A stretch of 7,194 nt of DNA from the NCBI GenBank assembly GCA_002394525.1, contig DGUF01000245.1, forward strand, positions 1 through 7,194, written 5' to 3'. Made by a program: the position numbers and the translations under genes. The notes below the pieces were generated by a model. It searched no databases. It was given only the letters and a program-made list of their open reading frames with translations, and had not been told where the DNA came from. Positions 1,633 through 4,929 of the stretch are shown here, piece after piece (position 1 is the first letter of the stretch; each line of letters starts with the position of its first letter). Origin of the DNA: Lachnospiraceae bacterium UBA4317. GTDB lineage: Bacteria; Bacillota_A; Clostridia; Lachnospirales; Lachnospiraceae.

Positions 1633-4600
1633 ATGAGAAATAAGATGGAGAGAGTATTCGATTTTATCAATCCCTATATTGAAGCGGAGAGAGCCTATAT
1701 GGCGCAGAAGGACCTGCTGACGGAGGAGGGAGTCGGGTCCGCTCTGGAGATCCTGGGAAAGAGACTTGCCGACCTTGCCAATCCGGTCGTTTCCGAGATC
1801 TGCAGGGAGGAGCTGGAAAGGATCGCCCCTGCTTCTGTGCTGGGTCCTTCCTTCGTGAGTCCGGAGCAGAGGGAGGAGGCCCGGGAGGCTGTGGCCGGAA
1901 GGCTGAGGGGGCCGGGGGATCCCTTTTTAAAATACGAGGAGCTGGATCGCTGCCGCCAGGCAGTCTGCCGCAACTTCAGGGACTTTATCGACCGCTTTGT
2001 ATCCAGGGTGGAAGCCGGCAGGGAAGGGATCCGGCGCGGGCTTTTGGAGGGCTGGGACATGGGACGGATCTGCCGCCTGTCCTCCTCGGGAGCTGACTGC
2101 CATCTTCACGGCTCGAGCGTCCTGCGGGTGGAGACCGAGGGCGGGGCCTTCTATTACAAACCCCGGGACTGCGGTCCGGATGAGCTGTTTGCCAGGCTGG
2201 CAGCCTCTTTTTTTGATGGACAGATGCGGGCGCCCTCTGTCCTGTCCTTTGGCGGGGACTACGGATTTGTCGAGGCGGTCAGAGCCTTTGGCCTGGAGGA
2301 CGAAAAGGACATCGGGACCAACTTTTACCGCTTTGGCATCCTGCTCTCCCTCTTCCGGAGCCTGGGCAGCAATGACATGCACTTTGAAAACATTGTCGCG
2401 TCCGGGGGCTTTCCGGTCTGCATCGATCTGGAAACCCTGATCACGCCCATTCGCAGCCCCTTTGAGGGAACGGACTACCGGGACATGGAAGAGCTCGACC
2501 CTGTCATAAAGAGGATTCTTTTTTCCTCCGCCAATACCATGGCTCTGCCCATGCTCCTGCAGGGCAAGGCCCAGATGAGCCCCCTCTATGAGAAATCGGG
2601 GGAGTCCCTGCCTGTCTACCGGGGACAGAAACGGACTGTGGTGGGATTTGAAGAAAGACTGGCGGACGGCTTTTCCCGGGGCTATGATATCATCAGGGAC
2701 AAAAGGGAGGAGATCGCAGGCCTCTTAAATGAGTACAGGGATATGGCCTCCCGCTTTGTGCTTCGCTCGAGCTCCTATTATGCCCTGACCCTGCGGGACC
2801 TGCATTCACCGGCATTCCTGGAGGACTCAGCCAGAAGGGAGAGGGAGCTGGACCGGCTCGGGGACAGGCTCAGGGACCTGAAGACGGAAGACGCCGAAGC
2901 CCTGGTCAGATGGGAAAGAGAGAGCCTGGAGGAGGGCGATATCCCCTATTTCTCCCTGACAGCCGGCGGCCGCGACCTCTGCGGGGCCCCTCACGCAGAC
3001 TCCCTGGTCGGAGACTTTTTTGAGATCACGGCCCTGGACCATGCCGGCCTCTGCCTGCAGCAAATGGGAGAAGAGGAAAAGCGCTTTGAAACCGATTACC
3101 TGAGGGTCCGCCTCAGGCAGGCGGCAGACCTTACGGAAAATTTTAAGGAAGATCTTTCAGCGGGTTCCGCGACCTCTGCCTCCGCCTTATCCGGGGACAC
3201 CGGAGAAAAAGCGGATTTCCCGGAAGGCCTTTCCGGAGATTCCGCGGCCTCTGCCCCTGGCTTATCCGGGAACACCGGCGCGAAAGCGGAAGAGGCGCAG
3301 AGGCAGATGACCTGTGAAGAAGCCCTTCTGGCTGCCGTCGGCCTGCTGGAAGAGATCAAAGAACTTGAGGTCCGCGTTTCCGACAGGGACTGCGTTTTTC
3401 TGAGCTTCGATGAGAACCTGGTCCCTCAGTATTCCCAGGGGATCGGCAAGGGTCTGCAGGGGATGGCCCTGTTTTTTGCAAAATATGCAAAAGTCCTGCC
3501 GGACAGGGGGGAGGAAGCGGAAAAGCTGCTGGAAATGAGCAGGTCTGACACCCTGAGACTGATCAGGCGGCTGTCCCGCACGGATCTCTCAAAAGCTGGA
3601 AAGGGGACCGCCGGCCTCCTGACGGGGATCGGGGGGCTGTTTATGTCCCCGGCCCTCTGCGGACCGGATCCGGAGGAACCGGGCGCCAGGGAGCCGGATC
3701 GGAGAGAGCGGGCTCTGGAAATCCTGCTCTCCATGGCCGCCTCACTGATCCGGGAGGATAGGACGGATCCATACGCAGACCTGACTCTGGCGGCTGACCT
3801 CCTGCACGAGGGATTCAACTACCGGATCAAGGGCCTGTTCGGGATCAGGCAGAACATGGAGCTGTTCGGGCATCTTTTGTGTCTTCCCTTGGATTTCTTT
3901 ATGCAGAGGAGTCCGGCCGAGCTCATCGGGAGGCTTTCTCTGACCTCCTCCGTCACCCAGGCTCTGTTTGACAAGATCGTGCCCGCGGCGGTTCAGATGG
4001 TCATGGCCGTCCTGTATTTTCTGGTCATGTTCAGGGCCAATCCCGTCCTCGCCCTTCTTGTGACCGCCCTGGTCCTGATCAATATCCTGGTCAACCGGGC
4101 CGCATCCGCATTCACAGTCCGCTTTATGCAGCAGAGAATGAACGCATCCATGCAGATGGACGCCGTCATGGTCTCCGGGATCGATATGGTCGAGACAATC
4201 AAGACATCGGGAGTCGCGGGAGGATACTTTTCCAGATGGGCCTCCTGGCAGGCGGCCGTCAATTCGGGCAAGACCCGGGAAAACATGACCCTTTCCCTGC
4301 TGACAGGCTTTTCCCTCTTTATCCAGGACCTGACGGCAGCTCTCGTTCTGATGATCTGCGCCCTCCTGATCATGAGGGGAAATTTGACGATCGGTATACT
4401 CCTGGCCTTTCAGATCCTGGTCGTCAAATTTGCCGAGCCCGCTAGGAATATCGCCGATAACTTAAAGACGGCAAGAGAGCTCACGACCTCCGTCAGCAAG
4501 ATCCAGGATGTCAGGCGCTATGAGCCGGAGGCGGTCTTTTTGAGACCACAGGACGCCGGGGAAGAGCGGCAGGACCTCCTGACCGGGGACATAGAGATCA

Positions 4601-4929
4601 GAAATATGACCTTCGGTTATTCAAGGGCCGTCCCGCCCCTGTTCGAGGGCCTGAGTCTCTCCATCAAAAAGGGGGAGAGCATTGCTATTGTCGGGAGCTC
4701 TGGAAGCGGCAAATCCTCCATGGCAAAGCTCCTGGCGGGCCTTGTGCAGCCCTGGGAGGGACAGATCCTCTATGACGGGAAGCCGCTCAGCAGGATCGAC
4801 GCGGATGGTTTCCACGCCGGCCTTTCCATGGTCAGCCAGGACAGCGCCATTTTTCATGACAGCGTCCGCAACAATATATGCATGTGGGACCGGACGGTCA
4901 AGGGAAGCGACATCGCGGCAGCGGCGTAA
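1633..4929 (+). CDS. Chimeric LanM dehydratase / LanT exporter fusion made by an internal deletion, then cut by a stop
   Basis: The 1098-residue frame joins two proteins. Residues 1 to about 505 are a LanM dehydratase domain (phosphorylates then eliminates Ser/Thr): YYKPRD with Lys176, SNDMHFEN (Asp248, His250, Asn253), the DLET acid at Asp265, and RFVLRSSSYY (374-383) in the elimination region. A Ser/Ala/Gly-rich repeated linker follows (508-552). A LanC-like cyclase domain then begins (QGIGKGLQGMALFF from 602, KAGKGTAGLLTGIGGLF) but ends near 712. No zinc ligands of the C...CHG type are present. From about 720 the protein is an ABC exporter: LCLPLDFFMQRSPAELIGR, membrane helices near 782-821 and 890-930, Walker A GSSGSGKSS (1021-1029) and Q-loop Gln1069. 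The C39 peptidase and the first helices of the exporter are absent. The frame ends at a TAA inside the ATPase. The start at ATG 1633 uses AGGA at 1620. It probably no longer works as a complete synthetase or exporter; dehydratase activity alone is conceivable. Confidence 0.85.
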   Translation: MRNKMERVFDFINPYIEAERAYMAQKDLLTEEGVGSALEILGKRLADLANPVVSEICREELERIAPASVLGPSFVSPEQREEAREAVAGRLRGPGDPFLKYEELDRCRQAVCRNFRDFIDRFVSRVEAGREGIRRGLLEGWDMGRICRLSSSGADCHLHGSSVLRVETEGGAFYYKPRDCGPDELFARLAASFFDGQMRAPSVLSFGGDYGFVEAVRAFGLEDEKDIGTNFYRFGILLSLFRSLGSNDMHFENIVASGGFPVCIDLETLITPIRSPFEGTDYRDMEELDPVIKRILFSSANTMALPMLLQGKAQMSPLYEKSGESLPVYRGQKRTVVGFEERLADGFSRGYDIIRDKREEIAGLLNEYRDMASRFVLRSSSYYALTLRDLHSPAFLEDSARRERELDRLGDRLRDLKTEDAEALVRWERESLEEGDIPYFSLTAGGRDLCGAPHADSLVGDFFEITALDHAGLCLQQMGEEEKRFETDYLRVRLRQAADLTENFKEDLSAGSATSASALSGDTGEKADFPEGLSGDSAASAPGLSGNTGAKAEEAQRQMTCEEALLAAVGLLEEIKELEVRVSDRDCVFLSFDENLVPQYSQGIGKGLQGMALFFAKYAKVLPDRGEEAEKLLEMSRSDTLRLIRRLSRTDLSKAGKGTAGLLTGIGGLFMSPALCGPDPEEPGAREPDRRERALEILLSMAASLIREDRTDPYADLTLAADLLHEGFNYRIKGLFGIRQNMELFGHLLCLPLDFFMQRSPAELIGRLSLTSSVTQALFDKIVPAAVQMVMAVLYFLVMFRANPVLALLVTALVLINILVNRAASAFTVRFMQQRMNASMQMDAVMVSGIDMVETIKTSGVAGGYFSRWASWQAAVNSGKTRENMTLSLLTGFSLFIQDLTAALVLMICALLIMRGNLTIGILLAFQILVVKFAEPARNIADNLKTARELTTSVSKIQDVRRYEPEAVFLRPQDAGEERQDLLTGDIEIRNMTFGYSRAVPPLFEGLSLSIKKGESIAIVGSSGSGKSSMAKLLAGLVQPWEGQILYDGKPLSRIDADGFHAGLSMVSQDSAIFHDSVRNNICMWDRTVKGSDIAAAA
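3154..3288 (+). repeat. Imperfect tandem repeat encoding a Ser/Ala/Gly linker
   Basis: Two 60-base copies (3154-3213 and 3229-3288) are offset by 75 bases and match at 48 of 60 positions by my count. They encode parallel stretches LSAGSATSASALSGDTGEKA and LSGDSAASAPGLSGNTGAKA. The repeat lies between the dehydratase and cyclase parts of the LanM region, where a flexible linker is tolerated. The period is a whole number of codons, so the duplication kept the frame. Confidence 0.75.
3765..3795 (+). other. Deletion junction: LanM cyclase joined in frame to the LanT membrane domain
   Basis: Sequence before this point (…ALEILLSMAASLIRED) reads as an early helix of a LanC-type cyclase domain. Sequence after it (…IKGLFGIRQNMELFGHLLCLPLDFFMQR) reads as the cytoplasmic stretch after the second membrane helix of a peptidase-containing ABC exporter. 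The rest of the cyclase, the gene boundary, the C39 domain and two helices should lie between; by usual family lengths that is roughly 1.5 kb. The exact join cannot be set without the undeleted relative. Confidence 0.7.
4927..4929 (+). other. In-frame TAA inside the LanT ATPase domain
   Basis: The reading frame is …DIAAAA, TAA, EAAIHPDIL…, and homology to the ABC ATPase continues without frame change after the stop. In NHLM-type exporters this stretch commonly reads AAKDACIH or similar, so the stop falls at a position usually held by Lys. One base change from AAA would create TAA. Confidence 0.8.

What the first reader, a model, noticed from the sequence alone, without database searches (positions are those of the whole stretch)
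1633..4929. LanM dehydratase fused in frame to half an exporter by an internal deletion
One 1098-codon frame starts as a LanM synthetase, enters the cyclase domain, then becomes the membrane and ATPase part of a LanT-type exporter. The cyclase zinc site, the C39 leader peptidase and the first membrane helices are missing. If it is real and expressed, it is a membrane-tethered lanthipeptide dehydratase without a cyclase, which would be a new architecture. If it is not, it is a clear case of cluster decay. The frame being kept over about 3.3 kb is notable either way.
Basis: partly seen in the sequence, partly recalled or inferred. Interest (0 to 1): 0.8.

Follow-up and report, generated by a model that had tools for sequence, protein, structure and literature searches.

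The report
Relic of a broken lanthipeptide cluster
A bacterial gene set for making and exporting a modified peptide has been broken by two deletions and a stop codon, so the apparent fusion of a peptide-modifying enzyme to an exporter is most likely a by-product of decay and not a new kind of protein.

Summary
The frame at 1633-4929 (1098 codons) is really there. It begins as a class II lanthipeptide synthetase (LanM), runs about 120 residues into the cyclase domain and joins, at about 3787-3793, an NHLP-type exporter (ABC1) at the end of its second membrane helix. Intact, near-identical proteins exist for every broken gene: LanM P0001 (94%), ABC1 P0004 (98%), ABC2 P0129 (95% and 98% for its two ends). 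The frame stops inside the ATPase domain, before the signature motif, Walker B and H-loop, and the rest of ABC1 follows at 4930-5298. The next gene, ABC2, has its own 1.27-kb deletion with loss of frame. In the two intact relative clusters read, other genes lie between LanM and ABC1 (stand-alone LanC, HlyD-like, in one also radical SAM), so the first deletion was probably 3.3-5.3 kb. Verdict: a decayed class II/NHLP lanthipeptide cluster; a working fusion is very unlikely; an assembly artefact cannot be excluded without reads. The side observation is more interesting: in 10 of 10 related LanM proteins the cyclase domain lacks zinc ligands, while 16 of 16 relatives of the separate LanC carry CCG, which suggests a two-protein class II system.

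The parts
1237..1515 (+). Nif11-like leader precursor peptide, 92 aa, intact, with a GG site and a core holding a single Cys at its end
   Evidence: ORF; leader_Nif11 TIGR03798 31.4 bits, just below its cut-off of 32.3, and Pfam Nif11 17 bits, below its cut-off of 23.8
1633..3786 (+). LanM part of the fused frame: complete DUF4135 dehydratase domain and the first ~120 residues of the cyclase domain
   Evidence: DUF4135 200.8 bits; 94% to P0001, 97% to P0002, 90% to P0003; LANC_like 603-973 in P0001
3787..3793 (+). Junction of deletion 1: at most 7 bases that can belong to both the LanM and the ABC1 side
   Evidence: Worked out by hand from window DNA against P0001 and P0004 proteins printed; an upper bound
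3794..4926 (+). ABC1 part of the fused frame: membrane region from the end of helix 2, and the ATPase domain up to past the Q-loop
   Evidence: TIGR03796 positions 213-589; 98% to P0004 over residues 714-1098
4927..4929 (+). In-frame stop codon inside the ABC1 ATPase domain
   Evidence: ORF end; TIGR03796 resumes at position 592 right after it
4930..5298 (+). Rest of ABC1 (signature, Walker B, H-loop), cut off from the frame by the stop
   Evidence: TIGR03796 positions 592-709, 184.8 bits; motif places
5338..5883 (+). ABC2 N-terminal piece (residues 1 to ~182)
   Evidence: TIGR03797 positions 7-140; 95% to P0129 residues 1-184
5884..5890 (+). Junction of deletion 2 (about 1.27 kb lost, frame lost), at most 7 shared bases
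   Evidence: P0129 residues 1-184 map to 5338-5889 and 607-724 to 5883-6236; shared bases worked out by hand
5891..6239 (+). ABC2 C-terminal piece (signature and Walker B side) in another frame
   Evidence: TIGR03797 positions 574-686, 202.7 bits; 98% to P0129

Best explanation
The window holds the relic of a class II lanthipeptide gene cluster with an NHLP-type exporter pair, probably from a Lachnospiraceae-like bacterium. One deletion joined the LanM cyclase domain to the middle of the exporter ABC1. It removed the rest of LanM, the C39 leader peptidase and the first two membrane segments and, inferred from relatives, also a stand-alone LanC cyclase gene, an HlyD-like gene and perhaps a radical-SAM methyltransferase gene. 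By chance (1 in 3) it kept the frame. A stop codon ends ABC1 inside its ATPase domain, and a second deletion took the membrane part and Walker A side of ABC2. The precursor gene and the dehydratase domain are whole, so decay is probably recent. At most the cell could still dehydrate the peptide; this locus can no longer cyclise, cleave or export it. Shown: the lesions and the intact homologues. Inferred: the size of the first deletion, loss of the middle genes, slippage between short repeats as the cause, and lack of function.
For: Intact near-identical homologues of all three damaged genes: P0001 94%, P0004 98%, P0129 95%/98%. Three lesions of two kinds between 3787 and 5890. No listed homologue has the fusion (0 of 120 listed, 188 found). 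Two intact relative clusters (G001, G425) have LanM and ABC1 as separate genes with others between them; the matching stretch is 5.3 and 3.35 kb. The order precursor-LanM-ABC1-ABC2 in the window is that of G001.
Against: No reads could be mapped, so the joins are not proven to exist in a cell. The relatives with known gene order are only 50-69% identical; the gene order around P0001, P0003, P0004 and P0129 was not seen. Sequence signs of relaxed selection are weak: in ABC1 the window deviates alone at 4 of 205 invariant columns against 1 for P0004 (5 against 2 of 294 with six homologues), the LanM part shows no excess, and a control pair (P0002 against P0001) gave 4 against 0, two of them in P0002's frame-shifted tail.
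Confidence: 0.86

Rival explanations
1. The joins are artefacts of assembly or amplification in a mixture of strains; the real genome carries the whole cluster.
For: Intact versions at 94-98% identity exist in other records, so mixed strains are plausible. No genome is held for the window and no reads are at hand. The fused protein was not found in the protein collection.
Against: The sides share at most 7 bases at each junction (worked out), too little for a k-mer join by an assembler (general knowledge). Two joins and a stop codon in one short stretch would all have to be errors.
Confidence: 0.1
2. The fused frame is a working, membrane-tethered dehydratase that no longer needs its own cyclase domain.
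For: The dehydratase domain is complete, and the motifs that align with LicM2 and CylM in P0001 are unchanged in the window (that these are the catalytic ones is recalled). The cyclase domain of intact relatives lacks zinc ligands anyway. Four hydrophobic segments remain. Excised dehydratase domains of CylM, HalM2 and NukM act alone (PMC10676384, passage seen).
Against: The frame ends in the middle of an ATPase domain, and ABC2 is broken. No listed relative has the fusion. In CcaM the zinc-free cyclase domain was needed for dehydration (PMC10676384, passage).
Confidence: 0.03

Closest known systems
Class II lanthipeptide synthetase LanM (TIGR03897; solved relatives LicM2 6st5, CylM 5dzt)
   Same: DUF4135 dehydratase domain, complete, with the motifs aligned
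   Different: Cyclase domain cut after ~120 residues; intact relatives have the domain but no zinc ligands. Scores lie below the family cut-off of 304 for the window (213.2), P0001 (280.6) and the G001 LanM (292.5)
NHLP/NHLM bacteriocin exporters ABC1 (TIGR03796) and ABC2 (TIGR03797)
   Same: Both genes recognisable; near-identical intact relatives P0004 and P0129
   Different: ABC1 lacks C39 and two membrane segments and is split by a stop; ABC2 has lost ~422 codons and its frame
LanMbC enzymes of dehydrazole clusters, such as CcaM (PMC10676384, abstract and passages seen)
   Same: DUF4135 joined to a cyclase domain without zinc ligands, as in the intact relatives here
   Different: Those clusters pair with YcaO; the cluster proteins that I named in G001 and G425 are a Nif11-like precursor, radical SAM, stand-alone LanC and NHLP exporter genes; no YcaO search was run
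Zinc-ligand-free LanM-like proteins such as CA_C0082 (PMC10301443, passages seen)
   Same: Cyclase domain without zinc ligands
   Different: Those also lack the conserved dehydratase residues; here the aligned dehydratase motifs are kept
Engineered BovT150M (PMC5141572, abstract and outline seen)
   Same: A chimera of LanM and part of its exporter
   Different: A laboratory design with the peptidase domain at the N-terminus of a LanM; here the peptidase is lost and the membrane part follows a cut LanM

Membership tests
Class II LanM synthetase | DUF4135 dehydratase domain | tested here: met
   PF13575 200.8 bits, cut-off 29
Class II LanM synthetase | LanC cyclase domain with Cys/His (or Cys/Cys) zinc ligands | tested here: not met
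   Window ends the domain before the site; 10 of 10 intact or near-intact relatives examined have Glu/Asp and Leu-Lys-like residues there, while 6 of 6 distant LanM proteins keep LCHG. P0009 and the G001 LanM are close to each other, so the ten are not all independent
Class II LanM synthetase | TIGR03897 curated cut-off of 304 bits | tested here: not met
   213.2 bits for the window; 280.6 for P0001 and 292.5 for the G001 LanM
NHLP exporter ABC1 (TIGR03796) | C39 peptidase, six-helix membrane domain and full ATPase domain in one protein, cut-off 853.3 bits | tested here: not met
   307.9 bits before and 184.8 bits after the stop; no C39 at E<=1; ATPase motifs split by the stop
NHLP exporter ABC2 (TIGR03797) | Full-length membrane and ATPase protein, cut-off 709.4 bits | tested here: not met
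   47.4 and 202.7 bits in two frames; residues 185-606 of P0129 missing
Nif11-like RiPP precursor (TIGR03798) | Leader score at or above 32.3 bits | tested here: inconclusive
   31.4 bits for the window; 17.9 for the G425 precursor and no hit at E<=0.01 for the G001 one
Dehydrazole LanMbC | YcaO partner gene in the cluster | not tested
   No YcaO search was run; the cluster proteins scanned with NCBIfam (six: five) gave no YcaO family at E<=0.01
Natural LanM-exporter fusion | The same architecture in other records | tested here: not met
   0 of 120 listed hits (188 found; candidates limited to 0.55-1.75 times the length) carry both DUF4135 and ABC domains

The most novel reading that the evidence does not exclude
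The intact form of this cluster is a two-protein class II lanthipeptide system: LanM dehydrates and keeps only a zinc-free, non-catalytic cyclase-like domain, while ring closure is done by a separate LanC-type protein with a three-cysteine (C...CCG) zinc site encoded antisense beside it. The window is a relic of such a system; loss of the LanM cyclase domain could have been tolerated, but the deletion very probably took the separate cyclase as well.
Probability: 0.5. Interest if true: 0.55.

Novelty: new member of a known kind. Interest (0 to 1): 0.28.

Why it matters
As given, the finding is a caution: a long open frame with two good domain hits need not be a new architecture, and the neighbouring genes and intact relatives showed two more lesions. 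It matters more for what it points to. A group of LanM proteins related to a Lachnospiraceae genome seems to have handed cyclisation to a separate LanC protein. That would depart from the usual picture of class II enzymes as bifunctional, and a simple co-expression would test it.

Tried and rejected
Look-ups that led nowhere: no whole genome is held for the window; viral contigs gave no relative; plasmids and phages gave no match in 'near' mode, the only mode used. The DNA search with the LanM part gave matches in 8 of 397 family genomes; seven of the eight were short (26-50 bases) and were set aside, leaving G001. LanM protein searches at strict limits gave 2 of 397 genomes (G001 and a distant one, G251, 29%) and 1 of 378 (G001). 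The exporter search gave 24 of 42 genomes of the genus and 37 of 397 of the family at E<=1e-150, but only G001 and G425 above 45% identity. So the close lineage of the window is not among the genomes searched.

Relaxed selection as proof of decay: tried and only a weak sign. ABC1 gave 4 against 1 (10 homologues) or 5 against 2 (6 homologues), LanM 2 against 1, 0 against 1 and 0 against 2, ABC2 pieces 0 against 0 and 1 against 0; the control pairs gave 4 against 0 (P0002/P0001) and 3 against 2 (P0003/P0001). A reading by eye had looked stronger and is replaced.

Recurrent truncation of the LanM cyclase domain (P0002, P0010, P0011) was considered as evidence that the domain is dispensable. It was not used, because admits only proteins of about 604 residues or more, so earlier truncations would be invisible, and because sequence errors are possible. 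Repeats in the window say nothing on the deletions, because one copy of any repeat would be inside the lost part.

Papers: searches for a LanM with a separate LanC and for a LanM-exporter fusion listed no such natural case in the held library (22 papers found and 20 listed; 1; 0; one found and 12 listed); a search for described lanM remnants needing all six terms gave none. Most subscription papers are not in that library, and I read passages of three papers and the abstract and outline of a fourth.
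Full report
What was claimed and what is there. The open frame at 1633-4929 is present and has 1098 codons; the other two forward frames over it hold 39 and 27 stops. Pfam gives DUF4135, then ABC_membrane and ABC_tran; LANC_like and Peptidase_C39 are not found at E<=1. NCBIfam gives LanM (TIGR03897, 213.2 bits, below the cut-off of 304) for the first part and NHLM_micro_ABC1 (TIGR03796) for residues 724-1098, positions 213-589 of 710.

What the parts are. A search of about 5.8 billion clustered proteins (188 hits, 120 listed) found relatives of each half: P0001 (1008 aa, 94% over window residues 1-745), P0003 (1024 aa, 90%) and the shorter P0002 (748 aa, 97%) for LanM, and P0004 (726 aa, 98% over residues 714-1098) for the exporter. 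P0001 has DUF4135 and a LANC_like domain at 603-973; the window follows it to residue 720, so about 120 residues of the cyclase domain remain. P0004 has Peptidase_C39, ABC_membrane and ABC_tran. The window enters it at about residue 224, at the end of the second hydrophobic segment (210-228) found by a simple scan, which saw five segments in P0004 and four in the fusion. None of the 120 listed hits carries both DUF4135 and ABC domains.

The exporter sequence continues in the same frame after the stop at 4927-4929: 4930-5295 matches TIGR03796 positions 592-709. The fused frame contains Walker A and the Q-loop but not the signature, Walker B or H-loop, which lie at 5005-5172. The next gene, ABC2 (TIGR03797), is also deleted: its intact relative P0129 (724 aa) matches window 5338-5889 with residues 1-184 (95%) and window 5883-6236 with residues 607-724 (98%) in another frame, so about 422 codons are missing. 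There are thus two deletions and one stop between 3787 and 5890.

How the deletions may have arisen. At junction 1 the window letters can belong to both sides for at most 7 bases (3787-3793), at junction 2 likewise for at most 7 (5884-5890). I worked this out by hand from window DNA and the relatives' proteins printed, so it is an upper bound. Such short shared runs fit slippage-type deletion and are too short for a k-mer join by an assembler (general knowledge, not tested).

What the undeleted locus looks like. One contig (L001/L018, genome G001; record title: uncultured Lachnospiraceae bacterium RUG14869) carries precursor, LanM, an antisense stand-alone LanC-like gene, a radical-SAM C-methyltransferase (TIGR03975, 500.5 bits, above its cut-off), a short gene weakly like NHLM HlyD (28.1 bits, cut-off 156.2), ABC1 and ABC2. 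A second genome of that genus, G425, has LanM, antisense LanC, HlyD-like (36.8 bits), ABC1, ABC2, precursor and radical SAM (494.2 bits). In both, LanM and ABC1 are separated, and the stretch that corresponds to the first deletion is 5.3 kb in G001 and 3.35 kb in G425. The window has the order of G001, so the middle genes were probably lost with the deletion. This is inference from relatives whose LanM is about 50% and ABC1 65-69% identical; the gene order around P0001, P0003, P0004 and P0129 was not seen. In Butyrivibrio sp. VCD2006 the ABC1, ABC2 and stand-alone LanC relatives (P0013, P0127, P0155) are listed on contigs of the same length, 226,951 bases; their order was not read.

The zinc site. 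In one search CylM has Cys-His-Gly where P0001 has Leu-Lys-Gly. In 10 of 10 LanM proteins of this group that reach the region (P0001, P0003, P0005-P0009, P0019, G001, G425) the place of the first Cys holds Glu (9) or Asp (1), and the place of Cys-His holds Leu-Lys, Leu-Gln, Leu-Asn or Arg-Lys; 6 of 6 distant LanM proteins keep LCHG. Of the 16 relatives of the stand-alone LanC (P0144 is the query itself), 16 have CCG and 14 show the C.GxPGI form of the first motif; P0153 and P0155 did not match that pattern. So the missing zinc site in the window is not a result of the deletion alone. [quoted passage not shown] there the domain was needed for dehydration, while excised dehydratase domains of CylM, HalM2 and NukM work alone (same passages). 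LanM-like proteins without zinc ligands are also reported in Clostridium (PMC10301443, passages). No paper on a class II LanM paired with a separate LanC came up; a 2026 survey of rumen isolates describes LanM as holding dehydratase and cyclase in one protein (PMC13289728, passages).

Function. The locus has an intact precursor and an intact dehydratase domain, and no working cyclase, peptidase or exporter. Dehydration of the peptide is conceivable; the other steps are not possible from this locus alone. Other copies elsewhere in the genome cannot be excluded, because no genome is held. The test for relaxed selection is weak: ABC1 4 against 1 of 205 invariant columns, no excess in LanM, and a control pair gave 4 against 0. 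That fits recent decay and does not prove it.

Verdict. The frame is real in the sequence and is best read as a product of decay of a class II/NHLP lanthipeptide cluster (0.86). An artefact is kept at 0.1 because no reads could be mapped, a working fusion at 0.03. The two-protein LanM/LanC arrangement in the intact relatives is the part worth following.

Noticed in passing
L018 10994-14943 and L056 13351-17450: LanM with a zinc-ligand-free cyclase domain next to an antisense stand-alone LanC with C...CCG, in both intact clusters read: a possible two-protein class II system.
   Followed up: partly
P0002, P0010, P0011: Three LanM relatives depart from the family inside the cyclase domain; P0011 is 100% identical to the G425 LanM for 654 residues and then leaves its frame. 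Decay, strain variation or sequence error.
   Followed up: partly
1237-1515: The precursor is intact; its core has many Thr and one Cys at the very end, as in the G001 and G425 precursors, so at most one thioether ring per peptide is possible.
   Followed up: no
L018 9057-10973 and L056 5924-7834: A radical-SAM C-methyltransferase (TIGR03975) sits in both intact lanthipeptide clusters, hinting at C-methylation of the product; none is in the window.
   Followed up: no
242-973: Intact gene of the putative cyclase family PF04199 (117 bits), upstream of the relic.
   Followed up: no
6255-6707: Intact UPF0047/YjbQ-family gene (PF01894 75 bits) right after the relic.
   Followed up: no
1-147: The left end reads like the C-terminus of a TnpB-type transposon protein; this is recalled only, and Pfam gave no hit for the 48-residue piece.
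   Followed up: partly
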